Below are positions 5,241 to 54,690 of a DNA stretch of 64,000 bases, piece by piece. Positions within the stretch are counted from its first letter, which is position 1, and the number at the start of each line of letters is the position of its first letter. Under the pieces are notes generated by a model that was not told where the DNA came from, did no database searches, and saw nothing but the letters and a program-made list of their open reading frames with translations. The position numbers were made by a program, and so were the translations under genes. The stretch comes from Phorcus lineatus (lineage: Eukaryota > Mollusca > Gastropoda > Trochida > Trochidae): positions 39,914,520-39,978,519 of the forward strand of contig OV121089.1 of NCBI GenBank assembly GCA_921293015.1, in the 5' to 3' direction.

Positions 5241-5460
5241 ACTATCATTTTTTGACTAACCACTCGATAATCGCTTATACACATCTGTTGCAGTGTGAAA
5301 AACGGATGTTTTGATGTTTCATTATTTCTGTAATTAGGCTAAACCTACAATACTGTTGATTCAACTTTCCATCGCTGACACCTTTAATGTATATATTGCC
5401 GAAGTATCAGAAAATTCTACGGGATCCTCGTCTCAAACATACAGGTATCCGCAGAGACTG
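5241..5460 (+). promoter_or_regulatory. Promoter and non-coding first exon, BRICHOS copy A
   Basis: A TATA box (GTATATATT, 5389-5397) precedes a short 5'UTR exon of about 5420-5460 that ends at a consensus donor CTG|GTAAGC (5461). Upstream at 5241-5320 is a block conserved in all four copies, including CGATAATCGCTT and GTGAAAAACGGATGTTTTG. The 5'UTR exon carries a GGATCCTCG motif also kept in the four copies. The TSS was set from the usual 25-30 bp spacing and is approximate. Confidence 0.7.
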
Positions 5461-5628
5461 GTAAGCATATTTTATCAATTACTTTGATTACGATCTTTGC
5501 TTTTTCTCATGATGATTATTTTCAAGCCTAAGGATGATTAACCCCGTATTAAGGCAATTTATGTCATTCGAAATAAAAATTTCAGTACTTTCATCATTTG
5601 TCTTGCACCTGTTACTTTTGCAGCAACA

Positions 5629-8600
5629 ATGAACCTACTTTCGGCGTTCTTTTTGCTATCTTTGGTTGCGAATGCGATTTCCACTGAGGTAGGTTATCTG
5701 TTTTACGAAATGAAGTTTATAACACTGTTTATTATTCAATTTCAAAAACCAAACATTACCCCTCTGATTGATTTGCAAGATCAAATTTGTGCCATGCTTA
5801 ACACATCATGCATAAATATCGACACAAAGGTGAACAACTTACATGGGAATGGGCTTCATTCAAATTTAAACACATTAATACTCTAATATCTGTAAAAATG
5901 TAAACAAATTATGATTATGAAACTTGCTATAACAATCGAATTTGTTGAAATTTTTTAAAAGTGACTGGTTTGAATACCAAAAAGTACACAGGAGAAATTT
6001 TTTTTTTGTATTTATCTTCAAAGACAGTTGCTATTGCGTCCTTTAGTTTACCTGTCTTCTTAAGAATCTATCTACAACTGTATTACAGTTCAATCAATCG
6101 TTTTGTCAGTATTTAAAAGGCCATAGGCCTTGGTACATTCACGGTTACATCACACTATTAAAACATTTGTGTTTCCATTCTTTTGTCTAAAAGACAGACT
6201 GATTAAAATCGACCGTGTTCCGAGGAATAAAAGTTTCAAAATATTGTCTCTACCGAGATTCGAACTCTAATTGTCTAGGCTATCCTCTCCACAACTGTCT
6301 GACCGCAGCCTACTTTCCTTTTTACATTCCGTGTATGCCTCATTCCTGCTGTATAGTAAACAGTATTGTTCCATTTATGTCTTCTCTCTTGATCTTCTAT
6401 CTAAAGTGTCCCTTTTCGTCAATCTGAATTTTTACAATAATAATCGCTCCAAAAACTCCAGCTCCTACTTATGTAATAACAACTCGTTTGAAAGGTCTGA
6501 CTTCTCCACTTTGAGTGATTTATACTCTATTGTCGGGTCTATCCCTTTTGAAATCCGTTTCTCTGAAGCCTGACCTAACGTCCAATACATACATGTACAT
6601 ACAAAATTACAGATTTCCACTAATGAACACAATGAAGTCGACAGATTCACGTCTTAGTTCATATCCTTCAGAAAAACCTTCAACAGGACTATTGATGAAA
6701 GGATAGTGATATGGAGAGACTCACATAAACAAAACACTGTAACGGCGTTCATTCACATGTCGACTGGTAGGCATATGGTGGCATGTTTTCCATTTGTTTA
6801 ACTCTTCTTGGGAGGTAAACGATTTTTCAGTTGAAGTTCGCCAGGTATCTTAAGGTATCCCAATATTGCTGCATGTACAATTTCGGACACTTTGCAAACT
6901 TTGTGAGTCAGATAATTGTATCAACTAAGTGAACAGCCAGTTTAATTGTATGGTTTAAGAATCAAGTAATAATCCCATTTAGTTGAAGAGGTTTTTTTAG
7001 TACACCAATTATGTTGGTAACAATATTCCAATCTTTCCAAAGTAAATTAAAATTCATTTGTTGACGCCATTAAGAATTGTTGTGAGTAAAAGTATCTGCA
7101 CATTTGTATAGAATTTTCGTGCACATTTTTATGATATAACATGACCATTTCAAAACATATCTTATGGCACACGATAGAAGGGTTTCCATTAAAATCTTGG
7201 TAAGTATTTTATTATTTTAACTTGATAATTTCAAATAATTTAAGACAAGATATATCTCACAGTTTGGCTCTGTATCCTTCACTCCGGAGGATGGTATCAT
7301 ACTCCCGATGGAAATGGCACTCAACAATGACTCCTTGTTATCTATTCCCTCCAAACCGAAAAACTTCACAGAATGTTTTGATCAAACAATCAACTTTCAT
7401 GACTTTGACAAGGTGAGTTGAAATTAACTCGGTTGAAAACATATCCTTTCTAATCTAAAATTGCTTTCTAAGTTTTATTTTTGCAATTATATTTCTTCAG
7501 CGTTTCCATATGCTGCTCGCATTTATTTTGAAGTTATCCTGGAACATCTAGTCTACAATGTTAATGAATGAAGATGAATTAATCACATATTTCATTAGTT
7601 GATGATAAATCTAATTGGATGATTGACGTCAAATTAGTATTCAATAAACAAATGTCTTTTTTCATCCGAACGAATCGAAGGAAAGAAACACACAAATATA
7701 TAAATGAGATACAGATGTCCGTTATTGATTGTAATCAATGCTTTTGAATAGTAGAGTTTGAGTTCATATTGATCAGAAGAAAAATAAGTTTGCTGAGTGC
7801 TAAGTGACTAATTTCAAGAAATACAATCCTGGTGTCAAATGGGTTTTATGAGAAAGTATTGATGCGGCGAAAGGTAGTCATTATTAATTAAGTATAACAT
7901 TTGAGTGAATCAAAGTGTACTTGTGATTGTTTTCGTCAAAGGGACTGGTGGCATTAAAGGAAATTCAAGGGAAGAGATGTCTCGTAAGACCAACAAATGA
8001 AACCTTCGAGGAAAACAAGAAAATTTTGGACGCAGTAAAAAACGTGAGCGTATCTGTTAATGTAATCAAAACATAGGGCACTCTTTGATATGTTGTGTCT
8101 GAAATGTATCGTATGAATACATAATCTTTACATTAGTTGTAACCCAATATAATGGTTATGATAGTTAATGTTCTTTACTCGCTTGGAATCAGACATCTAG
8201 AAAAATCAATTTCCAACTGTTATAAAACACTTGGTACTATTACCTTTAAGCTAAAGATAATGTTTTTATTAAAACAGTGTCCATATGTCACAGGGTGAAA
8301 ATACCCTGAATCCGTTAGCCGGATCCCCTGCCGGATCCTCCGGATCCTCTCAACAATGGTATACTGGGATCCGTCGCCGGATCCCTCACCGGATCCGGGA
8401 TCCGGGCGGACACCGCCGGATCCCTTGCCGGATCCCCAGTAGATCAGAATACAGGGATCCGGCGCCGGATCCCTTACCGGATCCGGGATCCGGACGGACA
8501 CCACCGGATCCTCTTCCGGATTCTTAGTAGATAAGAATACTGGGATCCGGAGACGGACACCCTACCGGATCCTCTCCTTGTAGCGAAAGTAGGAATGTAG

Positions 8601-11600
8601 TTTAGAAAAATTAAGTTTTTTTAAAGTTAGGTAAGCTTTTGTCACAACAATACACCAAACATCTTTGACAGCTTTTACATATTCTTTACATGATATTGTC
8701 ATATAAAGGCCGTTTGCATTTATAAAGAAAAAATAAGTGTTGATATGTCTTTGTGAAAGATTGTTAGCCAAAGCTGACAAAGTCAAGTTTAAATGATAAT
8801 GTTTTGATGATTCGATTCAAATTGAAACACAATCTTCAGAAAAACACTATTTATTCGGAATCAGAATTTAAGGGGTTATTTCTTATCAAATTTTTTTTCC
8901 AAAATACTTTCTGAAATAACCATGGTAACGTATACTATTTAGCACCAATTGTCACGCTTGAATGCACACTCATCACACCTGTTGGTCAGTACACATATCA
9001 ACTTGCAAAATTAGGGTCTTACATAAGTGTTAATATTGTAAATGAATTCGCTTAGATAATATATCATAGATCACTTATAGTTATGATAAACTTTAGTACA
9101 CAAATTAAATAAAAAATAATTCTATTCAATGATTTCAAACATTTATTTACAAACGCACACACACTTAAATATATAACAAAAATCGTATAAACATATATAT
9201 CTATAAATCTGTATGCACCTGAGGGTAGTGTTTGTAGCTATTTCATGTGTGATTTTATTTAAACATATTTATACAAAACCAAGTATACACCTGAACAAAG
9301 GTAATTGCAAAATTGTCAGATTTCAGAAATTTATGAAACCCATTCTGTGAGTGAAATTATAACCGTATCTTACAGCGTATCAGGCGAGTTTTTTTATACC
9401 AGAAATTGAGGGGTCAAGGAGGGGGGTCACCTTATATACGAGGTCTATGTTTACGGTCCGTAATCATGTCGACCTGCCTAGCTATATACGTTATTGAAGG
9501 GGGGGGGGAGGGGGGGGGGGGGCTTATACACATAGGTCTATGTTTCAGGCCTAAACATTCTGAGGTTAGGTGACGATCCTCCAGCGGTGTCGGCCCGGGA
9601 CGCCTAAAACTTCTATTTCGGATGTACCGCGAAGAATAATTTTCAGTGCGGGAGAAAGTACCGTTTAGCCTAATCCTAAACCTTGCTTATCAAAACAGCG
9701 GGGGTAATTAAGGCATTCAATTGAGTTGATACATTTTATTAAGAAAACATGTTTTGCAAAAATAACAATTTTGAGAACTGTTTTTTCAATTGAGAAGAAA
9801 TAACTTATCAAGAAAAAATGTTTTGCAAAAATAATAATTTTGGGAACTTTTTTTTCAATTGAGAAGAGATAATTTATAAAGAAAGTGAGAATTTGAGAAC
9901 ACGTATTTTGTATATTGAGAAGATGTATTTTATATCTATATTTACGTTTATATATATACACATTGTGATGGCAAACGCACAGCTCAGAGTTCGCTTCGTT
10001 GAGTCCGTTCGTGGAGGAAGATCACTGTATTATGCTATGAAAAAGTTTCGTGACTAGTGGAGACAGATTGCAGTCAGCGACGTTGAACCACAACCATCCT
10101 GAACCTGATTTTAACTTCAAAGTTGATGAATTCAAGGCCAAGTTGATCCACCGTGCCAAGACGGAGATAGCAAACCTGAGAAAACATCCCAACGTAGTCC
10201 CCAACAGCCTCCTTCGACTCATACCTAGCTTCTCTGCTGTCAAGACAGGCATGTATCGACAACGTCATAACACCTTTGAACAACAGTGGCAACATGAGAA
10301 GTGTTTAAGTAAACCACTGTGTACATAATCTTGTCCTACTTGTTATTTGTTAGAGTTGTTAATTGTGTGCATTCAGCCGTTACATAGGTGACCATGTACC
10401 GCGACGCCTACGCTCATCGAAGCATGTCGGGTAGCCTTTTTAGGCTTCGCGGGCCATAACCCCTCCAGCCGAGAGAGACGCCTTGATGTCAATTCATCGG
10501 CAAAAAAACGTAATGACATTACTTTTATAAACATTACATATTAATTATGGAAATAAATTGTTTTCACACGTGGTCACCTTATACATTGTAATATACGGTA
10601 ATCTTCAAATAGGGTACTGGCTGTGGATGCATGAACCAAAAGTTGCCTAGTGATGAAATATGTTCAGTTTGATTGTTTAAGAGATGATTATAATTATGGT
10701 TCTTAAAAATTGTTATGAAAAAAGTTCTTGCAACTAGATTTGACAACATTTTCTAGATTCAGGAAAGCTCCTTTAATAATTTGTCCTTTGATTTCTGGAT
10801 GACAGGTTTTTTAAAAGGTAGTTTGCATCATATCTACAACATCATTTTGAAATTGGTAGGTCTTCAAGATTTATAATATATCTTGTCATTGAACGGCATT
10901 ATTATTTCAAAGAAAGAACTTATTATAAACAGTATATTTCACGTGTATGGGTTACAATTACTGCTATTACAATATTTCATGATGAATGGAAATGTTACAT
11001 TCATTTGGATAGTAATGAATTAACCCCCCCCCCCTCTCTCCACCGTCTCTCCTGCTACGGTTCGTTGAGCTCGTCTACCTGTCTCTTGTCTGATTGCCTG
11101 TAATTGTATGCAGGTGTTTTATGACCCCAAAATGCTTATAGGCGGGGAACTAACAAAAGGCGTATAATTACGCGGGACTACTTGAAGTCATCGGATTAAA
11201 TTGAAGGCACATACACACGTAAAATACTTACTGGTATAGACATTCCTTATATACATGACACTGTGTATTGACTAACCACCGGAGGTATCTAACCCTATGG
11301 TGGGGTACGAATACACATCCGCAAACATCCAACATAATGATTTGGGCGAAGAATTAGACTTACCTTACACTGTAAAACATAAGATTAATTTAAGAACTTT
11401 ATTATTTGAAAATCTTTCTATATTGTAACTAAAATAAGTTAAACACATATTATATATATCATTTATATTCATTCCTGCAATTCATACTCGTGATCGTTGA
11501 ACAAATTTACTATCGATTTCATGAAACAATCTATAAGTGAAGTACTTTGCTAAAATTTTATTATTAGTCTGATTGCTTTATTAAATAGAAAAACGAATTA

Positions 11601-14139
11601 GTTTAATTTGTTGTTCCCTTCAATTGAAATACCGATTTCATGCGGCTGTACTGTAGCAAAATTATTCATGCTCATTGATGTTACAACATCCAGTACTTTT
11701 TAGATGATTGCAACAATGAGAACGTGACCTGATGGACTACTTTGAAATGGGTGATCGGAAAAAAAGTAAGAGGAATTTATAAAGCCAGTTAACGAATCGA
11801 TGGTTTGAATGTCGAGAGTTAATGAATTCCACAGTTTTATTGTATCTGGTAAAAAAGACTTGACATATGTCGCCGTTCTGCATTGTACTGTTCGCACAGA
11901 TGAATGATCTCTGAGATTGTAATCATTTCTACTAGGTATTCTAGGAAGGAGGTTGCAGAGATATAATTGAGGCGCTAATTATTCTTCATTTTGTATAAAC
12001 GTGTTAGTTTAGAAATATATTCACGTTCAGATAGTGGTTTTTGATTAGTTTTTTCATATAATAGGTTATGGCTTGTACCGCAAACTGCTCCTCACATTGA
12101 TCTTAAAGCGTCTAGATTAAATTTTTCCAGTAAACTGCAGTGTTCCTTGGTAAGATGAAGGACTTATAAATAATTTACAAACTTTTCCGTGGAAACGATA
12201 TTTAAGGCTTCTTATCAGAGGGCTAACTTTCTTGATCATAGAATTTATATGGATATCCCATGACAAGTCTTTTGTCGAAATAGTGAAGCAGATGAGAAGG
12301 AAACAGTTAGTACCAATATAATTATGTTGTTATAGGTAACAGATGTACCTTTTATGTGTGTTTAAACATATGTTATATATTTCAATGAAATGGATTGGCA
12401 AATAAGCTGGAAGCTTATATTAATGCCGCTCCAATACAAAATTATATTTTGAATTTATTTCAATGAGATGATATTTATTTATTTACATAAATGTTATTCT
12501 TTTGATATCTTGTTACAATGGTTTGATCTTGATGTACATCATGATGAAATGAAGACATGTTTAACAATGTACATATGTGTTTGTTATTGTTTACTATTCA
12601 TATATTATTCAATACTAAGAATAACTTTCATTAATCGTAAGCTATGATGCGCCGTCTTGTCGGTTAATGCATACCCACTTACCGCATAATTACTTGCACT
12701 TTCACCTGTTGCAGCAATAAGACACAAATGAGTCTAGGTGAATGTGTATACGCTGACAGGTGTATTGGTCAAGTGTGTGCGTTCAAGCGTTACAGTGTAG
12801 AATATTGAACCGTGCTTCGATAAAATTAAAGTAGCCTGTTGAGAAAATGTCTTTCTTATTGTAATTAAATTAATATATCATTTGGATGTTGCGATGAAAT
12901 CTTATCGTTAATGAAACTTCAAAGAAAAAGTTTTTAAAGTGGAATCGCTGGGTAATATTGACTTTCTAAAAATCTAAATTCTAATGTCTACTGAAAAGAA
13001 AAGTTAAGACTCAATAGTTTTAGTTTAGAGAAGTTGTTTTCAAGCAATAAGTTTCTGTTAATCCTGACTTTGTCCACTCAGGGTAACACACTTACACAAA
13101 CAAATATTTTAAAAGCTATAGGTTAAAACAAACACTTAATAGTCATTTATATAATAATGTTACTAGTTGACAATATCATTTCAGGAATATGATAGTAGAA
13201 GGTATCAAAGATACTAGTATGATACTTTTTTTAGGAAAATCTTCATACGTGCAAATTCTTGAAGGTTCTAAGAATATTGATCATGAGATGATAAAACTTT
13301 TTTACATTCTTGCCTACTCTTACCACCTGGAGAGGATCCGGTAGGGTATCCGTCTCCGGATCCCAGTATTCTTATCTACTAAGAATCCGGAAGAGGATCC
13401 GGTGGTGTCCGTCCGGATCCCGGATCCGGTGAGGGATCCGGCGCCGGATCCCTGTATTCTGATCTACTGGGGATCCGGCAAGGGATCCGGCGGTGTCCGC
13501 CCGGATCCCGGATCCGGTGAGGGATCCGGCGACGGATCCCAGTATACCATTGTTGAGAGGATCCGGAGGATCCGGCAGGGGATCCGGCTAACGGATTCAG
13601 GGTATTTTCACCCTGTGTGTGATACTATCCAAAGTTTGATAGTACTTAATGTTGTTTTTTAATAAAGAATTTATATTTTCGACATCATATCAGGGTGACA
13701 CTGAACCAGTGCCTCAGGGTATAGAAAATTGGATAATCCCAAAGAATCCTTTAAAAGACAATGAGGTGGAATTCCACTTTGGCAGAAGAATTGCTGACTT
13801 CTGTTCAGGCTACAAGGTGTATCGCATACACCAAGGGTCTGTTCAGAGGAGCTTGAGAGGTATTTCCTTTCTGAATTTCAAGAAACTAGTAATCAACATC
13901 CTATAATTGTAATTCAACTTTTTTCCAGGTAATACTACTACTGTACGGGTAGTCCTACTCTGATATTAAATAAAGATGATGCAGACCCAAAACAATCGAA
14001 TTTCAAGACTCTTTAAGACTAAAATCTCGTGGTTTCCGATCAGTTAGATATGAAGTGTTAGGGCAGGGCAGGGAAATGTCAAACTGCATATATGCAATAT
14101 TCAAATTCTTACATATGCAGTGACTGCTCATTGATATTA

Positions 14140-14206
<67 letters not shown>

Positions 14207-14285
14207 TTCAGTACTGGACAGGTCTGCCTCATCGCTGTGCTGGGCCGCCTGTGGTGTTTGCAGCGCCATGATGGAGAACCTTTGA
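5629..14285 (+). CDS. Secreted BRICHOS-domain protein, copy A (five coding exons)
   Basis: Coding exons are 5629-5688, 7263-7412, 7942-8043, 13694-13859 and 14212-14285, all with AG/GT borders; phases are 0,0,0,1. The product is about 183 aa. Residues 1-20 are a signal peptide (MNLLSAFFLLSLVANAISTE), followed by a 40-residue linker with an N-glycosylation site. The BRICHOS domain is about residues 62-148, with FHDF (Asp67), KRCLV (Cys83) and DFCSGYKVY (Cys141), the Asp/Cys/Cys pattern of the family. The tail is LCWAACGVC...MENL. BRICHOS domains act as intramolecular chaperones in secreted or membrane pro-proteins; the client segment here is not obvious. The start follows CAACA just after the acceptor. 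AATAAA is at 14306. Intron 3 is inflated by a 5.33 kb insertion, so expression could be lower. Exon 5 has a second possible acceptor (14221) that changes the C-terminus. Family assignment is strong by motif but not searched. Confidence 0.75.
6040..6250. repeat. Old non-LTR 3'-end relic in intron 1 of copy A
   Basis: A segment with CAGTTCAATCAATC and AAAAGGCCATAGGCCTTGG recurs at 51640-51790 (unit D) and at 19080-19210 and, inverted, 20590-20690 (unit B). In unit B the adjoining sequence encodes the terminal Cys-rich region of a non-LTR retrotransposon ORF2, so this is probably the 3' end of the same family. It has no coding capacity here. Confidence 0.45.
8289..8577 (+). repeat. Left TIR with GGATCC subrepeats
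   Basis: About 90-bp subunits starting ATAC(T/A)GGGATCCG are repeated just over twice. Each holds several GGATCCGG/CCGGATCC half-palindromes, so the strand can fold on itself. The composition (GC-rich) contrasts sharply with the AT-rich intron. The inverted copy is at 13329-13617. Confidence 0.85.
9738..9880. repeat. 69-bp tandem repeat inside the element
   Basis: Two adjacent units carry ATGTTTTGCAAAAATAA and TTTTTTCAATTGAGAAGA in the same order, followed by a partial third unit to about 9930. No function is evident. Confidence 0.6.
9968..10328 (+). pseudogene. Decayed FLYWCH zinc-finger protein frame
   Basis: ATG at 9968 opens a frame with VRFVESVRGGRSLYYAMKKF, the typical start of a FLYWCH domain, which stops at 10055. 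A second frame follows with GDRLQ, then directly NHNHPEPDFNFKVDEFKAKL, and later LIPSFSAVKTGMYRQR, which matches the region after the finger in FLYWCH/MULE-associated proteins. The middle of the finger, with the paired Cys residues, is missing, so the finger cannot bind zinc. The DDE transposase domain was not seen downstream. Confidence 0.6.
11700..12300 (-). pseudogene. Non-LTR retrotransposon ORF2 C-terminal remnant
   Basis: The minus strand encodes, across several frames, SPLIRSLKYRFHGKVCKLF and then SVRTVQCRTATYVKSFLPD followed by TIKLWNSLTLDIQTIDSLTG. This resembles the segment downstream of the reverse transcriptase core in CR1/Jockey-like elements (SFLP..I..WNSLP pattern). It is 5' truncated and interrupted, and nested within the 5.33 kb inverted-repeat element. 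Confidence 0.65.
13329..13617 (-). repeat. Right TIR, inverted copy of the left TIR
   Basis: It is the same length as the left TIR and nearly the same sequence in inverse orientation, ending TTTTCACCCTGTG. The high identity between the two TIRs suggests a fairly recent insertion or gene conversion between the arms. Confidence 0.85.
14138..14208. repeat. (ATT)n microsatellite in intron 4 of copy A
   Basis: An uninterrupted ATT/TTA run lies just upstream of the exon 5 acceptor. Unit D has only a short ATTATCATT stretch at the same place (54282-54297), so the expansion is specific to copy A. It adjoins the splice-acceptor polypyrimidine tract. Confidence 0.95.
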
Positions 14286-14690
14286 TTTTATTTCTTACAT
14301 GAAACAATAAAGTAAGAATTGCATCCATGCTGTTGTCTGTACTTCTAAGTCCAAGGTCCATGTAGTATTGTTTTATTGTATACTTTGGTAAACTAGTGTG
14401 TTTTCAAATATTAGGTGACGTTTCCTTTGAGCCTGCGTGTATATACGGAATGTATCTCTGTATTTGTTTTAATAAGTTTATGCAATCGAGCAATTCCACC
14501 ATCAAACAAGCCAAAAAGCTCAATTGAAATCACCCCCACCACACATACAATATATCAAGGTGGTGTTCATACATGCAAACATCACAACAACACGCCAAAT
14601 AATAAAAACTGATAACCTGACGGCCTTTTGGACTGTCCAACTTCCTAACTGTCTAACTCCCCGAAACTACTCGTGCATTCCATTTTTAAC

Positions 14691-17822: not shown

Positions 17823-17992
17823 GTAAGCATGGTTTATCTCATACTTTGTTTGCGATTTTTGCTTTTTCTCATGAAGATTAGTTTTCAGGCCTAAGGGTAA
17901 TTAACGCGGTAGACAGGCAATTGTTTTGATGCGAAATAAAACTTCAAAGTACTTACATCGATTATCTTGCACTTGTTATCATTGCAGCAACA

Positions 17993-20900
17993 ATGAAACT
18001 TCTTGCAGCGTTCGTCATGCTATCTATGGTTGCGAATGCCATTTCCACTGAGGTACGTTATCTATTTTACATACTAAAATCCACAACACTGTTTTTATAC
18101 CATTTTTATGCAACTTTCATAGGAATGTGTTCATACAAAAGGCAAGGAACATAAATACTTCTTATTTTCAGTGAGGATTTATTCAAAAGTTGCTTTTTCT
18201 TTTCAAAAAGAACATGTAGGAATTAGACTAAAAAATCGGGATCCAGGATCAAATAAAAAAATTTTTAAATGAAACTTTTGCATGTTTCCAATCGTCAGTG
18301 TACACGTTATTCATATTTGATTTGTTAGAGTTTCAAATGAAAACTGTTTAAAATTTAATCTAGAAAAGGTAAATATTTTATTTTGATCAGAATAAACAAA
18401 CCGTTTAAAAATGTCTTTACATTTTGTGATGTGTCTATTTATGTTTATAATTTCATTATTCTAATTTGTTTCCATGAATCAAAGTAGATGGTTTTCTTGG
18501 TTTCATGAACATATTTTCGCCCATTTCGCCTTGACAAAAATCAGGGTACAAAAAGCGGTAATTAAGTTGTGGTTACATTCAATACGCAACTGATGTATGT
18601 AAATCGGCACAGATCCTTAAAACAAAAATAATTTAAAATCAGAACTTGTATGCATAGTTCCCCGGTAGTAACAGGTAGATGGTGCAATGTTAGACCAGTA
18701 CAGAAGAGAGATTGTGTATAGTTTGTTACAACTGGCAATAATATTAGCATGTATAGCATTTATCTCTACATCATTGGTCATTGCTGGTGGTGTTGCCTGA
18801 ACTGAGGCTATGGGTTCGAATCCCGCAAGGGACTAGATCCAAAAATGTACAAGAATTTGTACTTTTGCATATAGTGTGATACAAAATCTAAAACTGTTAC
18901 ATTTGTTCACTATCTTAATTGCATTATCTCTAAAGTGAAAACGCAGGTGATTATGAAACATGCAATATTAATCGAATTTGTTGGAAATTATTTTTAAAAG
19001 TGACTGATTTGTGGGTTGCCTCTATCTACCAAGACATTTGCTATTGCATCATTTACTTTACCTTTCTTCTTAAAGCTACCTTTAAATTAAATAGATCACG
19101 TGATTGACGTCGGCAGTGTAATACAGTTCAATCAATCTTTACGTCACTACTTAAAAGGCCATATGTCTGTAGTATATTCATGGGTAGGTCACATTAATAA
19201 ATCATTTGTGTTTTCAATATTGTTTATAAATAGCAATACATTTCAACATTTCAAATATACATTACAAGGTTTTGTAATGATTGTGTCCGTTTACCTTTCT
19301 AGACAGGACAGAATGAAAGGAAATGAAGCTCATCTTCCACAGCACATATATTATTATCTTTACTTGTATCTATTCAGTATTTTTCTTTCAATACCTGCTT
19401 ATCTTTAGTTTCAACAAAAAAATCAGAAGTTGAACAACGAAAGGGGAAAATACGCTCTACCAAACAATCCTACATCAAGTTTTGAAAGATAACTTTCAAC
19501 ACATATTTCAGATTACTACCTTCTTTGATATAGACATTATATGTTAAGTTTATAGTGACATTTATTGTACCCTTGATCGCAATTATATATATTTTATTAT
19601 TGTGTTATTAAAATGATGAAATTCTGAATGTGAATAGACATTTTGGTTGTACCCGGGAAGGTTGACCATGTCCTGCATTGTTGGGAAGTCTCATATATCA
19701 GCCTTTCATCTCAATTCTAAAGTGGACGCTATATGCGTCAGATGAGACTTCCGTTAACGCCTTTTGGAACATATTTCATATGAAGGAAAGCCAAATACTA
19801 TTTCATGGATCTGAAAATTTGGAATTCCAACATTATGATAACATTTAAAAGGTTCATTTATATGCATACAAAAATACAAAAAGTTTTTTGGTGTTAAAGC
19901 AAGCATATGTAGCGTGATGGCCTATGGAGAATATTCCCATTGTTCACTGAACTTCAATTAGAGATGTTTGGTATTGGATAAGATTATCAAAACATGCCAT
20001 TTCACAGATTTCTGGAAACAAATTGATTTCACATGATGTGAAATTATGATAAAAATGATACAAGAAAATAGGTGACTGATATAAGAGACTTCTCAACAAA
20101 ACAGCTCTTGGTACATCCAACGTGTTAGTTTACAATCAGAATTTCATCATTTCAATAACACAAATAATGAAAGATATATACCTCAGAATCCATGTCATTA
20201 TCAATGAAATATCTCATTGCTATATCAAAGGAAATATTAATCTGAAATATGTTTTGAAGGCTATCTTTCAAAATTTTATGCGAGATGGTTTCGTAGAGCT
20301 TTATTGCTTTCGTTGTGTCTTATGAATGAAAAAATACTGAACAGATGTACGTAAAGATTGTAATAAATATGCTGTGGAAGATGAGCTACATTTCTTTTTA
20401 TTCTGTCCTGTCTAGAAAATTATACAGACAAAATATCTCAATCCAAAATGATATAATCACAAAGATATAAAACATAATGTGATTGTAAAAATACCAATTC
20501 TCAATTTTTACAAAACCTAGCAATGTACAATTTAAATGTATTGTTATTTCTGGAATATATTGAAAACATAAATTATTTATAATGTGATCTATCCATGAAT
20601 GTAATTAAGGCCTGTGGTCTTTAAAGTACTGACATAACGATTGATTGAATCATCGCCGATTTTCATCACGTGATCTATTGATTTTAAAGGTAGATTGTTA
20701 AAACAAGTTAAGTAAAACAATGTATGTTGAGCCGATGTTGTCGGGTCATGTTCATTGCTCTCAAGGGTCGATAAGCTCGCAAACCAAACTGGCGGAGACG
20801 TCTGGCTACTGCTGACGGGGTGATGAAAAGCATCACTTGCTGATGACATCAAAGTGAGGAATCTGTTACGTAGGTGCAGCGTGCACAAATATTGGTCTTC

Positions 20901-23696: not shown

Positions 23697-23830
23697 TTTT
23701 ATTTCTAACATGAGAGAATAAAATAAGAATTGCATCCATGATGTTGTCCATCTTTTGATTTCTACGTCCCACGACCATGGAGAATTTTTTTGTCATAGAT
23801 GTATATGTTTGTGAATGTAAGACTATTGAG

Positions 23831-35768: not shown

Positions 35769-35947
35769 GTGAGCATACATGTCGTTTTTATCATACTTTG
35801 ATTACAATTTTTGCTTTTTCTCCTGAAGATTATGTTTTCTAAGCATAAGGGTAATTAACCCAGTTGACAGTTTAATGTTCTCATGCGAAATAAAACTTAG
35901 TTTAATAAAACATAGATTATCTTACACCTGTTATCATTGCAGCAACA

Positions 35948-39694: not shown

Positions 39695-39770
39695 TTTTAG
39701 TTCTTACATGGAACAATAAAGTCAGAATTGCATGACCATGGAGAATTGTTTTATTTTAGTCTTAATTGGT

Positions 39771-42523: not shown

Positions 42524-42570
<47 letters not shown>

Positions 42571-42572: not shown

Positions 42573-42649
42573 TTTATTCAGTATTTGAGGACTCATGGCC
42601 AAGAGTAGAATCATTTGAAATAATACATATAGTTTGCGGATGGACAAGT

Positions 42650-44800
42650 TAACAAATGATTATAAAAGCTGTTTTTTTTTACACAGGCAGGATACGTTTA
42701 AGAAATATCGCAACCGATTCAATTACATTTACATTTGATTTTGCTAAAAGTTGTTTGAATTTTAATTGTGATGGAAAAGTATGATAACAGCTGCTTATAT
42801 ACAATTTTCTTTGCAAAGAATTAAATGGACACATAAGTAGAAAATGAAATTCATCTTGTTGAACATTATAATCACATTTGTCACAAATAGGTTTATCGCT
42901 TTGTATATCAACATTATATTTATATCTTTGTTTTTGAATGTCCAACTTATGGCTTTGACATCAAAATTTGCATAAAATACGTAGAAGATCTTTATTTAGA
43001 TTAAGTGTTAAGATGTATTTCTCTGGTTCCAGGGCAGACTTGATTGATCCATAGTATTTAGAAAAGATGACGATGTTAGCCTGGAATGCCAATTTTGAAT
43101 TTTAATATGTTTACATCTTTCTCGAAATTCAAAAACAAATGCATCCATATTTCCACATTCTTGTGTTATCCAAACATATGAAAAGCCTGTACGAAACAAA
43201 AGCAAACGCGAGACCCAACTGCAGCTGCCATGGTCATCTTCTTGCTTTAACGTATCATAGCATGCTTTGGGGTGACGGTGATCGTCCATATGTATAATTC
43301 TGCACCAATATTTTATCCATCTACTGAAATTTATGAACACATAAGGGAGTTCTACCATCTTCTCCAAGTATAGCTTTGGAAGAAATCGTTTTATGAACAC
43401 ACAAAAACCGTTTGAAAAAGAAGCATTGGATTTTCAAGATTGACTTCAAAACCCCATCTTGAGCAAAACGGATACAGTGTCAAGTTTTTTTCTGCAAGCC
43501 AATTACAGTGTCATCGAGCAAAGTAACATCATCTGCAAAAAGCAGTTATAAAATATCATTTAAATCATCTTTGACAAATATTCCTCTTTATCAAAATTTC
43601 TTCATCTCATCCACAAGCTCGTTGATAAAGAATATAAATAGTACTGGACTTAACATACAACCTTGCTTTGCTCAAGACGTATCAAATATTTCTGACCTCT
43701 TTTTTCCGACTTTCACAAATGCAGATACCTTATCATACATATCTTTCAACAAATTGAACATTTTACCATGGACACCTTTTATAAGAAGAACATATAAGAG
43801 TTTATTTCTATTCACATAATCAAAAAGTACAAAAATGTTATCGACTGTTGAATAGTCAGCTCGAAATCCCTCTTGACATTCATGTAAAATCTCATGTAGT
43901 TCCATCAAGACACGAATTCTTGAGTCAAGGATCGATGTGAATATTTTACCCATCATATCCAACAAAGAAATGCCACGATAATTGTTATGATCGTGCTTAT
44001 CACCCTTTTTAAACAATGCTATAATCATCCCAACAGTCGGGTATACGCCAGAGTCTAAAACAGCATTAAATAGTAATTCTAAATATGGAATTATAAAATT
44101 TCAATTTTTAAAAAAAACTCAGGTAGTATTACCCGGAGATTTTCCCGTCTTAAGGGACTTGATTGCCTGTTCAATTTCGTTTCTAGTCATATGATCTGAT
44201 AAGAAATCTACGTTGTTACAATCTGAACAATTATGGGCAGTTTGTTCAAAACCTTCATCGTTTCTATTGTTTGCGGGATTTAGTAATTCTTTGAATTTTG
44301 AAAGCCATTAACCCATGGAAATACAGTTAGGTCCTCCCGACCCAGATGTAAGAGATTTTACCTTAGACCAAAACTTCTTACAGTCACCATTGGTAGCTGC
44401 TGCACATATTTCATCAGCAATCATTTCATTATATTGCCGTGACTTATCCTTGCACAGTTTTTTTAACGTTACGTTTAGCATCAGTGTAACTATTGAGATT
44501 CTCATTAGAACGATACTTTCGGAACAAATCAAAGTGCGAAGATTTTTTTCATTAAACTATTTAGGTTGGATGGGTTTTTGCTTCGGTATTTTAGAGGTGT
44601 TATTTGCACGTAAATGACTACCCGCATGCTGCATAAGTTTTACCAGTTTCTCAGTTGCAGCATTGCACTTTATTTTGTATTTGGAACAATGCAATGCTCC
44701 GGAAAATAAACATAGTCGTTGTAGATTTTTGTCAAGGCTTACCAAAAAAAGTACACATATTGTTGTACGCAAAAGGTGGTAAAATATTCCTTGTTCACCT
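42650..44800 (-). pseudogene. Non-LTR retrotransposon ORF2 remnant with reverse transcriptase (-)
   Basis: Reading the minus strand from 44800: a linker with RKYRSNENLNSYTDAKRNVK and KSRQYNEMIADEICAA. Next is the RT domain (43672-44028) with ALFKKGDKHDHNNYRGISLL, QEGFRADYSTVDNI and NLLKDMYDKV. An ADDVTLLDD-like catalytic motif follows near 43520. The C-terminal tail (42679-42945) has KPICDKCDYNVQQDEFHFLL and MCPF. At least five frame changes and missing pieces make it dead. The endonuclease domain is not visible upstream, so the copy is 5' truncated, as usual for LINEs. Confidence 0.85.
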
Positions 44801-46484
44801 AAGAAGTTGGTCGATCATCTATGACCAAACTAAAATAACGCATAACTAGTAACGTACTTTGTGACTTAACAGTATGAACGCCTCTATGTACTGTAATGTA
44901 CGATTCCGCATTTGATAGGAAATTAAAATATATTTCATTTGAACATACGTACAAGGCGGTAGCGAATATACCCTGGTAGTCTAGAAAGTTATTGTTTAAA
45001 ATTATAAACTTTTTTTGTGACTTTACGTTATGGTCGCCTTTATATATAGAACGTAAGATACCACATTGGATAGAAAAATAAGTAAGCGTTAATTTTAGTA
45101 TTCTGTATCAAAATAAACAGGGTATTTAAGATTGCCAATTGCCAACAAGGAGACGAAGCATTCCCTGTTGGAAGCGTCTTGAAGTGGCTGAAAATATTTA
45201 TATAGTTTAAGTTGTGTTTTTGCCGCAAAAGATCCATTTAATATTGGATGAAAAACATTTAAACGCAAAACAGTGATAAAAGAGGGGACTTCAGGTTTTT
45301 TGTTCTTGTTAAAAGATCGCATTTCGTACAGTAAATTTATTGTCATTAACATTTTTAAAAACAGCACCCATGTTAGCATTTCATTTTCAGTTTTATTGTG
45401 GTAAGTAGACCTGTGTATCGTGGCGTGACCAATATCCCGATTCAAGTTTTATTAGGGGAGACAATATATCATTGAAGTAATTCAAAGGAACCTGCGATAC
45501 CATTATCATCACCATACAGTAGTTGCTATACAATACGTTTCCCGATGCTCTACAGTTCATGAAAGAAGAATATATAGGACATAGAAAAGTAATGTTTTTC
45601 TTAGATACCAAATTGTCATTAACATTACATGAAATCGCAAAATTAGAGAGGTTGAGAAATTGCAGATAAAATATCACAATATCATCAATGTTCTGTTTGT
45701 GTGATCACTCTTATCTCTGCAATAAAAAGTTATTTGTTTGTAACATATTATGTTAACAGTATCAGGATATATTGTCTCTTATGGCGATACATGGATATAT
45801 CATGGACCATATAAATATCCTGATATATTGTCTAAATGTGTTTTGTATCGATGCACTCGTATCGCGTAGTAGACAATGCAAACATCGATACTATCAATGA
45901 ATTGTTACACCACTAGTGCCAAGTTTCTTCAATTTATCGACACTTTCAACATCAAGTCAATTGCCATTTATACATGATTGGTTGTAATGATTTATTTGTT
46001 CCTGAAATTGAAATTCTTTTTTATTTCATTTTCATCATTATGAAATTGTTCTCACAACAAGTCACACAATACTTTACACTTTCTCTGTAAGGAAGTTAAT
46101 TTTTTTGAATGAGTCCTACTAGCACGGAAAGTAATTAGTATTGCCCACTTTCCATCAAAGCCGACAGAACAATGACTTTCTGGTAGCGTTTTGATATTAG
46201 TAAAACTGAAGCCAGTTAACATAACGTTTGGCTATGTAAGAAAAGTACTTAATACATTATCCTTATTGTTTTTTTAAAAATCTTTGTTTAAGTAAGGTTT
46301 CTCTATATAACAAATCTAAAGATCATTAATTTTGTCATAGTGTTTGCTATTGAGATCGATAATCATGTAAAATGTTACGTGAAACTAAACCTTTTTTTTA
46401 TAAGAATCAGGCAAGCAATCTACACTATGTTTTCTTTACCACATCAATGCATCAATGTACAAACATCAAACATCAAGACCTCAT

Positions 46485-46575
46485 TTCACAAAGCAACCTT
46501 AACTCCCATACTTTAACATTGCACTAAGGTTACCCTAAGAACTTACGATCACGTTAGGGCTTTGTGAAAACAGGC
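46485..46575. mobile_element. MITE-like palindromic repeat, unit D copy
   Basis: This is the same insertion as at 1205-1315, at the same site relative to the gene, with CACAAAGC and GCTTTGTG arms. It was inherited through the A/D duplication. Confidence 0.5.
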
Positions 46576-48026
46576 CCAGTGCTTGTTGTCATTTTCTTCG
46601 CAGGTGTGCTTCATTATTTTAACGTTATCTACAATAGTTTATCTAATCTTTTAGTCTTGGTGATGTCTCGGATCAGCAAGAGAGTGGTTTTCAATTTGAT
46701 TGCAAATTTAGTGAGATTCACTATTATAAAATAAAAGCTTGTGCTTATTGTCACTTGGGTGAATCCACTTATGAGCAGTGTAAAACCAAAGCTAAAAAGT
46801 AAGGTGTTTGGAAAAAATTAATTGATTAAGTTTATTTGAATCAAGACGTAGTTATACTGGAGAAGAAAAAACTAGAAACCGACGAAACGATACCACGTCA
46901 AATTAGACTGTAATGTAACAGATGTAATCATGCAAATACAAATGTTGATGACGTGACTAGCCCATCTTACTAATTGGTCAAATGCAAACATGCACGTCAA
47001 GTGAAAGCTGCAATTATATACATGTGTTACGTATGCACGAGTCGTCCTATTTGCTGACGACACTTCCATTTACGTATTTGTCAATGGTATTGGTGAATGC
47101 CACTATATTTTGACTGCCTTCTTTTGTTTAGAAAATATAAGAAACATTTGTACAAGACCTAGTTGTTTTCAAAGAAAGTGATAGTACAATTGTTGGCAAA
47201 CTCATTTCAAACAAATATCGTGGAAATAATTTTTGCCACTTTGTTACCTGTATTATCATGTAATGACATAATGCCTACGTCTGGGATGCCGTAATTACGA
47301 AATGCTTTCGTTTCCGTGCCATAACTCAAACACTGTTAAATGTTCTTTGTTCTTTGACGAAATCTATCCAGAATTATGTGATGAAACTTGGAAACGAAGC
47401 TTTTCCAAATCTATTAACTTTAAGTATCATTTTAGGAAACATGGTGCATGGTTCGACCGAGTGCGTTAAATTGTGTCCTTTGTTTCTTTGGTTGTTCTAT
47501 GGTTTTTTTCTGATTTTCTGAAACAGTTTGAACCAGGTGCACATGTGAGCACCTTTTCCGTCCTCTATCTGAAAATCTATACACTTTTATTTTTTGAGAC
47601 TTGGTATGTGGTTAGATCTTGTGTTGAAGACTTGCCTATTAGTACTTAATTTATTCAAAAATTTTACAATTTGAAAACAATTTGAACTTGCATAACTGGC
47701 CTATATGTTTATTCTGCAAAGGTTTGGTTGTAGTTGTGACAGGAGGCATCACATGCACACATTTATAGTTATCTATGTAAATATGTACACTGTGTCACTA
47801 TTAGTGGGAAATAGTAACAAAGTAACTTCCCCTTTTTGATATAATTGTAATAATCCATTTTTTTGGGCAAAACTATAAGTCTGCCATACATATTACCCAC
47901 TTTTGAATGCAATCAATATGATACGAATCGAAATAACGATATGGACAAAAAAAAGTTTTGGTAAAAGGTTTTCCCGATTCTTATCATTTCAATTTCTATA
48001 ATGCCTCCTAAAGAAGTAATCCGAAT

Positions 48027-50155: not shown

Positions 50156-50864
50156 TAGGAATTCTAGACATAACTCTACAGAGTGTTGATACCCGATATC
50201 ATTGTCCATATTTTCAGTATTTAAAGATTGTTATCACATCGTATTCAAAAACACTTAACTGTAGAAATTATCATGAACAAAAGTTGAATTCATAATACAG
50301 TAAAACATATTTGAAAATGATTCTTCACATTTTGTAACTTAAGCCCGAGAAACCTTCGTATTTCCTCTGTGGGAGAGAAAGATATCCAATGTAATCTTAA
50401 TTCTTGTCATTTGCATCATATTTGAACTCCATTCCCTACATATTTAACAGATATATTTATATATACTTCGTTCGTCAGATATTTGAACTTCATTCTCGAT
50501 GTATTTGACATTTAGTGCAAAGGTCATCATAATCGTAACGATATAAATCGAAATAATATATGGTAACATACTTTTCAAAAAAATTTATTGTACTTACCAT
50601 TTACAATTAGAAGAATCTTTACAATTAAATGAATTTACATAGAAGAATCTTTACAATTAAATTAATTTACAATTAGAAGAATCTTTAAAATTAAATGATG
50701 TGTGGAGTTATTAGAGAAACTAGCTATGAAATAAATCTTAAAGGAAACGCCATTAGCAAAATAATTATTAGCGCAAACATAACTTTTAATTTAAAAGTAA
50801 GTTTTTCGCCTGATCTAAATTTCAGTTTTGAGTTTCAGTTATTCAAAACTATCATTTTTTTACT

Positions 50865-51068
50865 AACCACTTGACAACCGCTTATAACCATCTGTTGCAG
50901 TGTGAAAAACGGATGTTTTGATGTTTTTAGCATTTCTGTAATTAGGCTAAACCTACAATACTGTTGATTCATCTTTCCATTGCTAACACCTTTGATGTAT
51001 ATATCGCCGAAGTATCAGAAAATTCAACGGGATCCTCGTTAGAGTCATAAAGGTATCCACAGAGACTG
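50865..51068 (+). promoter_or_regulatory. Promoter and non-coding first exon, BRICHOS copy D
   Basis: The conserved proximal block (50870-50930, GTGAAAAACGGATGTTTTG) is followed by the TATA box GTATATATCG (50998-51007). A 5'UTR exon of about 51030-51068 ends ACTG|GTAAGC. A deletion relative to unit A has moved the older repeat (to 50860) directly against this block, so anything essential further upstream in A is lost here. Confidence 0.7.
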
Positions 51069-51236
51069 GTAAGCATATTTTATCTATTACTTTGATTACG
51101 ATTTTTCCTTTTTCCCATGATGGTTATTTTCAAGCCTAAGGATGATTAACCCCGTATTGAGGCAATTTATGTCAATCGAAATAAAAATTTCAGTACTTTC
51201 ATCATTTGTTTTGCACCTGTTATTGTTGCAGCAACA

Positions 51237-54200
51237 ATGAACCTACTTTCGGCGTTCTTTTTGCTATCTTTGGTTGCAAATGCGATTTCCACTGAGGTAG
51301 GTTTTACGAAATGAAGTTTACATTTCTGTTTATTATACAATTTAAAAAAACAAAAATTACCACTCTGGTTGATTTGCAAGATCAAATTTGTGCCATGCTT
51401 GACACATGCATTACTAGCGACTCAAAGGTGAACAACTTACATGGGAATGGGCTTCATTCAAATTTAAACACATTAATAATCTAATATCTGTAAAAATGTA
51501 TACAAATTATGATTATGATACATGCTTTAACAATCGAAATTGTTGAAATTTTGTGACTGGTTTAAATACCAAAAAGGACACACGAGAAAACTTTGTTTGC
51601 ATTCATCTTCAAAGACATTTGCTATTGCTTCGTTTATTTTACCTGTCGTCTTAAGAATCTATCTACAATTGTAATACAGTTTAATCAATCTTTTTGTCAG
51701 TACTTAAAAGGCCACGGGCCTTGGTACCTTCACGGTTAGATCACATTATTAAAACATTTGTGTTTCCATTCTTTGGTCTAAAAGTCTGATTAAAATCGAC
51801 CGTGAACCGAGGAATAAAAGTTTCAAAATATCGTCTCTACCGAGATTCGAACTCTAACTGTCTAGGCTATCCTCTCCACAACGGTCTGACCGCAGTCTAC
51901 TTTCCTTTTTACATCCGTGTATGCCTCATTCCTGCTGTTCAATACACAATATTGTTTCATCTATGGCTACTGTCTTGATCTTCAATCTTATAGTCAAAAT
52001 AGTCAGGTATCCTTTTTCATCAATCTGCTTTTGTACAGTAATTGACGCTCAGAAAACTCAAGCTCCTACTTATTTAATAACCAATCGTTTTTTAAGGTCT
52101 GCCTTCTCCACTTTGAGTGATTAATACTATATGTCGGGTCTATCCCTTTTGAAATCCGTTCCTCTGAAGCATGACCTAACGTCCAATACATACATTTACA
52201 TACAAAATTACAGATTTCTACTAATGAACACAATGAGGCCGACATATTCACGTCTTAGTTCATATCCTTCAGAAAAACCTTCAACAGACAGGACTATTGA
52301 TGAAAGGATAGCGATATGGAGAGACTCACATAAACAAAACACTGTAACTCTTCTTGGGAGGTAAACAGTTTTCAGTTGAAGCTCGCCAGGCATCTTAAGT
52401 TATCCAAATATTGTTGCATGTACAATTTCGGACACTTTGCAAACTTTGTTAATAAGAGAATTTTATCAACTAAGTGAACAGATTGTTTAATTGTATAGTT
52501 TGAGAATCAAGGTATAATCCCATTTAGTTAAAGAAGGGCTTTTCTTTATCAAACCAATTATGTTGGCAACTATATTCCAATCTTTCCAAACTTTAATTAA
52601 AATTTATTTGTTGACGTCATTAACGTATCTGTAAATTTGTATAGAATTTTCGTGTACATTTTTATGATATAACATGACCATTTCCAAACATACCTTATGG
52701 TAAACCATAGGAGGGCATCCTGGAACATCATGGTAAGTATATGATTATTTTAATTTAATAATTGCAAATAAGTTAGATAAGATATATTTTGCAGTTTGGC
52801 TCTGTATCCTTCACTCCGGAGGATGGTATCATACTCCCGATGGAAATGGCACTCAGCAATGACTCCTTGTTATCTATTCCCTCCAAACCGAAAAACTTCA
52901 CAGGATGTTTTGATCGAACAATCAACTTCCACGACTTTGACAAGGTGAGTTGAAAGGAACTCAGTTGATAAGATATCATGTTTAATCCAACATTGCTTTT
53001 CAAGTTATATCTTTGCACTGAACTTCCTCAGCTTTCCCATATGCCACTTGAACTTAGCCTGAAGCACATTAAGACTACAATGTTGATGAATGAAGATGAA
53101 TACTTTACAATTTCATGAGTTGATGATAAAACTAATTTGATGATTCAGGTCAATTAGTATTCAATGAGCAAATGTCCGTTTTCATCCGAACGAATCGAAG
53201 GAAAGAAAGAAACACAGTAAATAATAACACACACATAAATAAATGAGATACAGATGTCCGTTATTGATTGTAATCAATGCCTTTGAATAGTAGAAGGTTC
53301 AGTTTGAGTTGTTTTGATCAGGAGAAAAATAAGTTTGCTGAGTGCTAAGTGACTAATTTCAAGAATTACACTCCTGGTGTCAAATGTTTTTTTATGAGTA
53401 AGTATTGATGCGGCGAAAGGTAGTAATTATTGATTAAGTTTAACATTTGAGTGAATCAAAGTGTACCTGTGATTGCTTTCGTCAAAGGGACTGGTGGCAT
53501 TAAAGGAAATTCAAGGGAAGAGATGTCTCGTAAGACCAACAAATGAAACCTTTGAGGAAAACAACAAAATTTTGAACGCAGTGAAAAACGTGAGTGTATC
53601 TGTTAACGTTATTAAAACATAGAGCTCTCTTTGATATGTTGTATCTGAAATGTATCGAGGGAATACATAGTCTATCATTAGTTTATCCCAATATTATTGT
53701 TTTGATAGTTTATGTTCTTTACTCGCTTGGAATCAGACATTTAGAGAAATCAATTTCCAACTGTTATAAAACACTTGGTATCATTAACGTTAAGCTATAG
53801 ATATTTTTTCTTAAAACAGTGTCAATATGTGATACTAACCAGTTTGATAGTACTGAATGTTGTTTTTTAATGAAGAATTTATATTTTCGACATCATATCA
53901 GGGTGACACTGAACCGGTGCCTCAGGGGATCGAAAACTGGATAATCCCAAAGAATCCTTTAAAAGACAATGATGTGGAATTCCACTTTGGGAGAAGAATT
54001 GCTGACTTCTGTTCAGGCTACAAGGTGTATCACATACACCAAGGATCTGTTCAGAGGAGCTTGAGAGGTATTTCCCTTCTGAGTACTGAATTTAAAGAAA
54101 CTAGTATTCAACATCCTATAATTGTAATCCAACTTTTTCCAGGTAATGTATCCCTTTTAAGACTAAAATCTCGTGGTTTTCGATCAGTTGGACATGAAGG

Positions 54201-54375
54201 GCAGGGCAGGAAAATGTCAGAATGCATATATGCAATAGTCAATTTCATACCTATGCAGTGACTGTTCGTTGATATTACATTAATATCATTATCATTTTCA
54301 GTACTTTACAGGTCTGCCTCATCGCTGTGCTGGGCCGCCTGTGGTTCTTGCAGCGCCATGATGGAGAACCTGTGA
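51237..54375 (+). CDS. Secreted BRICHOS-domain protein, copy D (five coding exons)
   Basis: Coding exons are 51237-51296, 52795-52944, 53488-53589, 53902-54067 and 54302-54375. The signal-peptide exon encodes the same 20 residues as copy A, and exons 3-4 share copy A-specific residues (KRCLVRPTNE, IHQGSV). Differences from A include ENNKILNAV and a KVYHIHQ stretch where Arg became His. BRICHOS landmarks Asp67, Cys83 and Cys141 are intact. The tail is LCWAACGSC...MMENL. Before exon 5, TTTACAG|GT makes the second acceptor the strongest of all four copies. AATAAA is at 54396. No element interrupts this copy, so it shows what the A gene looked like before insertion. Confidence 0.75.
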
Positions 54376-54690
54376 TTTTATTTCTTTCATGAAACAATAA
54401 AGTAAGAATTGCATCCATGCTGTTGTCTGTACTTCTACGTTCAAGGTCCATGTTGAACTGTTTGATTGTAGACTTACGTAAAATTGTTTGTTTTTATAAT
54501 TTGGTGACGTTTACTTTGTGCCTGCGTGTAAATACGGAATGTATATCTATTTCTATATTCGTATTTAATATTTATGCAATCGAGCAATTCCACCACCAAT
54601 CAAGCCAAAAAGCTTAATTGAAACGACTCCACCACACATACAATATATCAAGGTGGTGTTCATACATGCAGACATCACAACACGCCAAGC

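What the first reader, a model, noticed from the sequence alone, without database searches (positions are those of the whole stretch)
5389..54401. Tandem family of four secreted BRICHOS-type genes
Four full gene copies on the same strand keep the same six-exon layout, phases and the D/C/C signature of BRICHOS domains, all with open frames. Every polychaete BRICHOS precursor I know with a comparable layout (signal peptide, BRICHOS, Cys-containing C-terminal peptide) is an antimicrobial peptide precursor of the arenicin type. Here the tail is short, hydrophobic and Cys-rich rather than cationic. It is therefore either a different client or a new class of BRICHOS pro-protein in molluscs. An array next to IL-17-like genes makes an immune or mucosal role plausible.
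Basis: partly seen in the sequence, partly recalled or inferred. Interest (0 to 1): 0.85.

Follow-up and report, generated by a model that had tools for sequence, protein, structure and literature searches.

The report
Four tandem secreted BRICHOS pro-protein genes
An animal genome carries four intact side-by-side copies of a gene for a small, apparently secreted protein with a BRICHOS chaperone domain and a short cysteine-rich tail; it is a real gene family of a known kind, whose intron phases resemble those of a worm antimicrobial-peptide gene although the tail itself does not look like such a peptide.

Summary
Four genes on the + strand each encode 183 aa without stops, frameshifts or indels. 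All 16 coding introns are GT-AG, phases 0,0,0,1. A conserved 5'-UTR intron (4 of 4) makes six exons, and AATAAA follows every stop. All four pass the Pfam BRICHOS cut-off (32.3-35.8 bits against 25). D67/C83/C141 spacing (16, 58) nearly equals that of ITM2A (16, 59). Whole-CDS dN/dS is 0.21-0.34. Two IL-17-like frames lie beside the array.

The last exon encodes a tail of about 24 aa, net charge -1 to 0, with CX3CX2C; an invariant RSLR stands at the exon junction. Preproalvinellacin, an annelid antimicrobial precursor, also has phase-0 introns except the last in phase 1, but six coding exons against five here.

Best reading: a secreted BRICHOS pro-protein with a non-cationic client. It is not filed as an arenicin-type AMP precursor, because the cationic criterion fails. 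A gastrokine-like uncleaved protein is the main rival. Function, tail splice frame, fold, expression and host phylum remain untested. New member of a known kind.

The parts
5629..14285 (+). BRICHOS gene copy 1, ATG to stop; coding exons 5629-5688, 7263-7412, 7942-8043, 13694-13859, 14212-14285; 183 aa
   Evidence: Pfam PF04089 33.5 bits
17993..23696 (+). BRICHOS gene copy 2; coding exons 17993-18052, 21027-21176, 22730-22831, 23129-23294, 23623-23696; 183 aa
   Evidence: Pfam PF04089 35.8 bits
35948..39694 (+). BRICHOS gene copy 3; coding exons 35948-36007, 37870-38019, 38455-38556, 38815-38980, 39621-39694; 183 aa
   Evidence: Pfam PF04089 32.3 bits
51237..54375 (+). BRICHOS gene copy 4; coding exons 51237-51296, 52795-52944, 53488-53589, 53902-54067, 54302-54375; 183 aa
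   Evidence: Pfam PF04089 34.5 bits
5461..5623 (+). 5'-UTR intron of copy 1 (GTAAGC...CAG); a TATATAT element lies at about 5390
   Evidence: intron; TATATAT
17823..17987 (+). 5'-UTR intron of copy 2
35769..35942 (+). 5'-UTR intron of copy 3 (GTGAGC donor)
51069..51231 (+). 5'-UTR intron of copy 4
5629..5688 (+). copy 1 signal-peptide-like exon (20 codons, ANA at 14-16); equivalents 17993-18052, 35948-36007, 51237-51296
   Evidence: signal peptide judged by eye, no predictor run
7263..7412 (+). copy 1 linker exon ending in HDFDK with the conserved D67 and extra C58; equivalents 21027-21176, 37870-38019, 52795-52944
7942..8043 (+). copy 1 exon with first BRICHOS cysteine C83; equivalents 22730-22831, 38455-38556, 53488-53589
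13694..13859 (+). copy 1 exon with second BRICHOS cysteine C141 and, at its end, RSLR (156-159); equivalents 23129-23294, 38815-38980, 53902-54067
14212..14285 (+). copy 1 tail exon (residues 160-183, CX3CX2C) with stop; equivalents 23623-23696, 39621-39694, 54302-54375
14306..14311 (+). AATAAA poly(A) signal of copy 1; equivalents 23717-23722, 39715-39720, 54396-54401
56854..57438 (-). IL-17-like open reading frame (neighbour, not part of the array)
   Evidence: PF06083 45.0 bits
61067..61651 (+). IL-17-like open reading frame, inverted duplicate of the previous one
   Evidence: PF06083 44.3 bits; 92.8% over 746 bp

Best explanation
A tandem array of four functional genes for secreted BRICHOS pre-pro-proteins. 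Shown: signal-peptide-like exon, linker, BRICHOS domain (Pfam, D/C/C) and a separate last exon encoding a short neutral, hydrophobic tail with three cysteines, in a coding sequence kept by purifying selection. Inferred: the signal peptide is removed after A16; C83 and C141 form the BRICHOS disulphide; the BRICHOS domain shields the hydrophobic, cysteine-bearing tail in the secretory pathway; a furin-like convertase cuts after RSLR-159, at the last exon border, freeing or exposing the 24-residue tail. The tail has three cysteines, so it must leave one free for a dimer or pair with C58 of the linker, which would keep it tethered after cleavage. This is the Bri2/alvinellacin way of working with a different, non-cationic client. 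My estimates: intact BRICHOS genes 0.97; secreted 0.9; tail frame as modelled 0.85; cleavage after RSLR about 0.55; the tail being the active product about 0.45. Its target (microbes, mucus or another protein) is not known; a barrier or mucosal role is my best guess.
For: PF04089 at 33.5/35.8/32.3/34.5 bits, cut-off 25, profile positions 8-91 (8-90 in copy 4) of 91. D67-C83 spacing 16 and C83-C141 58, against 16 and 59 in ITM2A (PMC2751770). Region lengths as I count them (hydrophobic 16, linker 48, C-terminal 35) fall within the published ranges. The 4-sequence profile lists Bri2 BRICHOS (8rnu) second of 9 PDB matches, HDFDK..C on HDFNK..C, but only at E about 1. Whole-CDS dN/dS 0.21-0.34 in the six pairs. 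RSLR has invariant codons in 4 of 4. Preproalvinellacin: introns all phase 0 except the last in phase 1 (PMC4002450), last exon containing the AMP (PMC5431198). Furin release of a 23-residue tail is described for Bri2 (PMC9714404).
Against: RXXR is a less frequent convertase site; 13 of 13 H. filiformis precursors have Lys/Arg-Arg and nicomicin has Lys-Lys. An odd number of tail cysteines is awkward for a free peptide. Phases 0,0,0,1 alone would arise by chance in a few per cent of genes (my estimate from recalled phase frequencies), and alvinellacin has five introns within the CDS against four here. The last donor scores only 5.4 on a weight matrix recalled from memory, the lowest coding-intron donor in 4 of 4 copies, and an alternative at 5.8 exists upstream. 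With a single sequence the PDB search shows no BRICHOS protein. No transcript, peptide or structure was examined.
Confidence: 0.5

Rival explanations
1. A gastrokine-like secreted barrier protein: the tail is never released but is disulphide-bonded to the linker (C58) or to a partner protein, and the whole protein works in mucus.
For: GKN1 has six exons (PMC5370009); GKN1 and GKN2 may have signal peptides and are co-localised in the genome (PMC2751770); GKN2 forms a disulphide-linked heterodimer with TFF1 (PMC7350206). Total cysteines here are six, so all can pair if C58 joins the tail. The convertase motif is only RXXR.
Against: RSLR is perfectly conserved right at the exon border. Two tail cysteines conserved in most BRICHOS families are 17 apart in ITM2A numbering; here three tail cysteines span 7 residues, though the spacing in gastrokines themselves was not seen. 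No gastrokine sequence was available for a direct comparison.
Confidence: 0.3
2. A special case of the best explanation: a true antimicrobial-peptide precursor of the annelid BRICHOS-AMP kind, with an atypical hydrophobic, disulphide-bearing peptide.
For: Same phase rule and last-exon peptide as preproalvinellacin; tandem duplication as in alvinellacin; IL-17-like genes next door; non-cationic Cys-rich BRICHOS tails exist in H. filiformis; a BRICHOS transcript is listed beside a defensin-like one among genes up-regulated in Mytilus digestive gland fed toxic algae (PMC4203926).
Against: Tail net charge -1 to 0 in 4 of 4; no even-numbered cysteine ladder such as C-X4-C-X4-C-X4-C; reviews restrict BRICHOS-AMPs to polychaetes; one coding exon fewer than alvinellacin.
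Confidence: 0.15
3. The protein ends differently: intron 4 uses the upstream donor (after K145), giving a different tail, or the copies are partly decayed.
For: Upstream donor AAG|GTGTAT is conserved in 4 of 4 and scores 5.8 against 5.4. Tail and BRICHOS core do not differ significantly in the share of replacement codons (p 0.14-0.15), and the tail's three frames do not differ clearly in their pattern of changes.
Against: The alternative frame has no stop shared by all four (copy 3 reads through), would cut the domain off at K145, before the end of the Pfam match at residues 147-148, and leaves the conserved codons 146-159 (9 invariant, 1 synonymous, 4 replaced) unexplained. The modelled frame ends in a shared stop followed by AATAAA.
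Confidence: 0.1

Closest known systems
Annelid BRICHOS-AMP precursors (preproalvinellacin, preprocapitellacin, arenicin, HfBRI peptides)
   Same: Hydrophobic start, linker, BRICHOS, C-terminal peptide; in alvinellacin introns phase 0 with the last in phase 1, the peptide on the last exon, and tandem paralogues
   Different: Tail here is neutral to slightly acidic, three cysteines in CX3CX2C, RXXR rather than dibasic site; five coding exons plus one untranslated, against six coding exons in alvinellacin; exact intron positions not compared
Bri2/ITM2B
   Same: HDF(N/D)K...C motif around the conserved Asp and first Cys; furin-type release of a tail of similar length (23 against 24)
   Different: Bri2 is a membrane protein; here a signal-peptide-like start. 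PDB profile match only at E about 1
Gastrokines GKN1/GKN2
   Same: Possible signal peptide, six exons (GKN1), clustered genes; similar size (recalled)
   Different: No sequence compared directly; three closely spaced tail cysteines here
BRICHOS domain-containing transcript of Mytilus galloprovincialis digestive gland (PMC4203926)
   Same: A BRICHOS protein reported in a mollusc
   Different: No sequence or architecture given in the passages read

Membership tests
BRICHOS superfamily (PF04089) | Score above Pfam gathering threshold | tested here: met
   4 of 4 spliced proteins, 32.3-35.8 bits against 25
BRICHOS superfamily (PF04089) | Strictly conserved Asp and two Cys at the right spacing | tested here: met
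   D67/C83/C141, spacing 16 and 58 against 16 and 59 in ITM2A
BRICHOS superfamily (PF04089) | Four-region layout: hydrophobic, linker, BRICHOS, C-terminal | tested here: met
   Lengths within published ranges (positions); signal peptide by eye only
BRICHOS superfamily (PF04089) | BRICHOS three-dimensional fold | not tested
Annelid BRICHOS-AMP family | Cationic, AMP-like C-terminal peptide | tested here: not met
   Tail 160-183 net charge -1, -1, -1, 0
Annelid BRICHOS-AMP family | Gene structure: six coding exons, introns phase 0 except last phase 1, peptide on last exon (stated for alvinellacin; six exons also for capitellacin) | tested here: inconclusive
   Phase rule and last-exon tail agree, but here five coding exons plus one 5'-UTR intron against six coding exons in PMC4002450; exact positions not compared
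Annelid BRICHOS-AMP family | Convertase site before the peptide | tested here: inconclusive
   RSLR in 4 of 4: RXXR, not the usual dibasic site
Annelid BRICHOS-AMP family | Antimicrobial activity | not testable with these tools
   Needs peptide synthesis
Gastrokines | Two conserved tail cysteines (17 apart in ITM2A numbering) | tested here: inconclusive
   Tail cysteines 169, 173, 176; the published spacing is ITM2A's, that of gastrokines was not seen
Gastrokines | Sequence closer to gastrokines than to other BRICHOS families | not tested
   No gastrokine sequence available in the tools used
Interleukin-17 (neighbours) | PF06083 above gathering score | tested here: met
   45.0 and 44.3 bits against 24

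The most novel reading that the evidence does not exclude
The preproalvinellacin-type gene (phase 0...1, last-exon client) is older than polychaetes. In this lineage it carries a non-antimicrobial client whose CX3CX2C tail, with a CG[VS]C pair, works as a redox-active, metal-binding or cross-linking peptide in mucus, chaperoned by BRICHOS and amplified in tandem.
Probability: 0.13. Interest if true: 0.65.

Novelty: new member of a known kind. Interest (0 to 1): 0.42.

Why it matters
Two reviews read in passages state that BRICHOS peptide precursors of the alvinellacin kind are known only from polychaetes. Four natural variants of chaperone plus tail give a ready-made set for testing whether BRICHOS and its client co-evolve.

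Tried and rejected
Rejected: chance open frames (no indel in 4 x 552 nt, while introns 2 and 4 diverge by 12-49%). Rejected: filing the genes as antimicrobial precursors, because the cationic test fails. Tail evolving faster than the core: point estimates of dN/dS for residues 149-183 are 0.29-1.05, but replacement codons are 8 of 24 in 160-183 against 15 of 84 in the BRICHOS core, p = 0.15, so I do not claim it. Single-exon Pfam test of ORF 53857-54258: no hit; the domain was recognised only with exons joined. Another gene inside the repeat unit: 20 further ORFs (of 209 of 60 aa or more listed) gave no Pfam match above cut-off, only three weak ones below it. NCBIfam with copy 1: none. PDB with copy 1 alone: no BRICHOS protein among 6 weak hits. 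Relatives in IMG/VR and GTDB contigs: 125 and 94 stretches matched a peptide pattern, none confirmed, as expected for an animal gene. Rfam at gathering thresholds: none. 'IL-17 neighbourhood means immunity' was kept only as weak evidence. Organism: could not be tested. Paper searches for molluscan BRICHOS gave reviews and one Mytilus transcript list: 14 of 14 listed; 8 of 8; 10 of 17 listed; 13 of 13; two searches asked for any two of six terms and listed only 30 of 14,484 and 8 of 4,454. I found no description of this architecture in a mollusc within those listings only. For this the rival on splicing went from 0.08 to 0.10 and the novel case from 0.15 to 0.13.

Full report
What is there. Three-frame translation of the repeated blocks and exon finding give four genes on the + strand: 5629-14285, 17993-23696, 35948-39694 and 51237-54375. 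Each has five coding exons of 60, 150, 102, 166 and 74 nt and encodes 183 residues. Amino-acid identity between copies is 154-174 of 183. All 16 coding introns are GT-AG; the exon lengths give phases 0, 0, 0, 1. A further intron of 163-174 nt in the 5'-UTR has conserved borders in 4 of 4, and AATAAA starts 20 nt after the stop in 4 of 4. A TATATAT element lies about 240 nt before the ATG in three of four copies (not copy 3).

More than chance. Between copies the CDS differs at 23-58 of 552 positions without any indel, while intron 2 differs by 12-43% and intron 4 by 12-49% of aligned positions with many gaps. dN/dS over the whole CDS is 0.21-0.34 in the six pairs. For copies 1 and 4, dS (0.116) is close to their intron divergence (0.12). 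Variable positions fall 25/13/45 on the three codon positions. The window holds four copies and no fifth. Homology before copy 1 runs almost to the window's start (from position 59), so more copies could lie outside; the genome search that would tell did not complete.

Identity. All four proteins pass the Pfam BRICHOS gathering score (33.5, 35.8, 32.3, 34.5 bits; cut-off 25; E 9.5e-9 to 1.2e-7). D67, C83 and C141 stand at nearly the spacing published for ITM2A (PMC2751770, parts 1 and 2 of 3 of the text read). The profile of the four lists Bri2 BRICHOS (8rnu) second of nine PDB matches, with HDFDK...C on HDFNK...C, but only at E about 1 and beside unrelated proteins: in line, not independent proof. 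The search with one sequence showed none. The fold was not predicted.

The tail. After the domain comes RSLR (156-159), whose codons are invariant, and then, across the phase-1 junction, VL[DEY]RSASS[LM]C[WA][AV][AV]CG[VS]CS..MENL. Net charge is -1, -1, -1 and 0, GRAVY 0.67-0.91. Copy 2 has three successive replacements between the first two tail cysteines, but keeps all three cysteines. The last donor (GAG|GTATTT) is the weakest coding-intron donor in all four copies, and AAG|GTGTAT upstream scores about the same on a weight matrix recalled from memory. I prefer the first because it gives a shared stop in all four copies and keeps the Pfam match whole. The pattern of changes in the last exon does not by itself single out the frame. 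The tail sequence therefore carries perhaps a 15% risk of being wrong.

How it may work. In BRICHOS proteins the domain is thought to chaperone an aggregation-prone segment, and a convertase usually frees the C-terminal peptide (PMC9714404, introduction read). The RXXR motif at the exon border fits that. Three tail cysteines cannot all pair within the tail; with C58 in the linker the total is six and all could pair, so the tail might remain tethered. I put release as active product at about 0.45 and an uncleaved gastrokine-like role at 0.3.

Comparison with known systems. For preproalvinellacin the legend of Figure S6 says five introns and six exons between the first methionine and the stop, all phase 0 except the last in phase 1; capitellacin shares five introns and six exons (PMC4002450, passages). 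The alvinellacin AMP lies on the last exon (PMC5431198, passages). Here there are four coding introns and one 5'-UTR intron with the same phase rule, so one coding exon fewer. I could not compare intron positions, and I do not know whether gastrokine or ITM2 genes have the same phases, so common descent of this layout with annelid AMP genes in particular is a lead, not a result. The antimicrobial label fails on charge. Non-cationic BRICHOS tails with many cysteines are known (HfBRI-75 and -91, PMC10745061, passages). GKN1 has six exons (PMC5370009, passage). Other papers seen in passages only: PMC6780910, PMC11767717, PMC6265681, PMC9756803, PMC7350206, PMC4203926.

Surroundings. Two IL-17-like frames stand head to head as an inverted duplicate of 92.8% over 746 bp. 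Of 20 further ORFs tested, none matched Pfam above cut-off. A BRICHOS transcript is listed among genes up-regulated in mussel digestive gland (PMC4203926), which shows only that a mollusc expresses such a protein. The source organism of the window is unknown to me.

Verdict. The functional reading stays open. It is a new member of a known kind with an unusual tail, of moderate interest.

Noticed in passing
8289-13617: A 5.3-kb insertion in intron 3 of copy 1, bounded by 305-bp inverted repeats 97.4% identical, absent at the matching site of copy 4 (about 53830); the target seems duplicated by 3 bp. Looks like a recent DNA transposon; three ORFs in it gave no Pfam match above cut-off.
   Followed up: partly
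25595-26550 (-): Tc1/mariner-like transposase remnants in two overlapping frames (PF01498 34.0 bits, above its cut-off; PF13358 26.8 bits, below its cut-off).
   Followed up: partly
43675-44100 (-): Reverse-transcriptase-like fragment (PF00078 23.6 bits, below its cut-off).
   Followed up: no
59261-59929: A 14-15-bp tandem satellite between the two IL-17-like genes.
   Followed up: no
32021-33526: Inverted repeats 99% (174 bp) and 93% (327 bp) identical upstream of copy 3, perhaps a mobile element.
   Followed up: no
59-2713 and 45331-48026: Upstream parts of units 1 and 4 are 91% identical over 2.7 kb, more than either is to units 2 and 3; copies 1 and 4 are also closest in protein (174 of 183), so the array did not grow by simple neighbour-to-neighbour copying.
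   Followed up: partly
23623-23696: In copy 2 three consecutive tail codons between the first two tail cysteines are replaced (WAA to AVV) while all cysteines stay.
   Followed up: no
14238-14261: The tail's CX3CX2C has the same spacing as the radical-SAM cluster motif and holds a CGxC pair as in thioredoxins (both motifs recalled); most likely coincidence in a secreted peptide.
   Followed up: no
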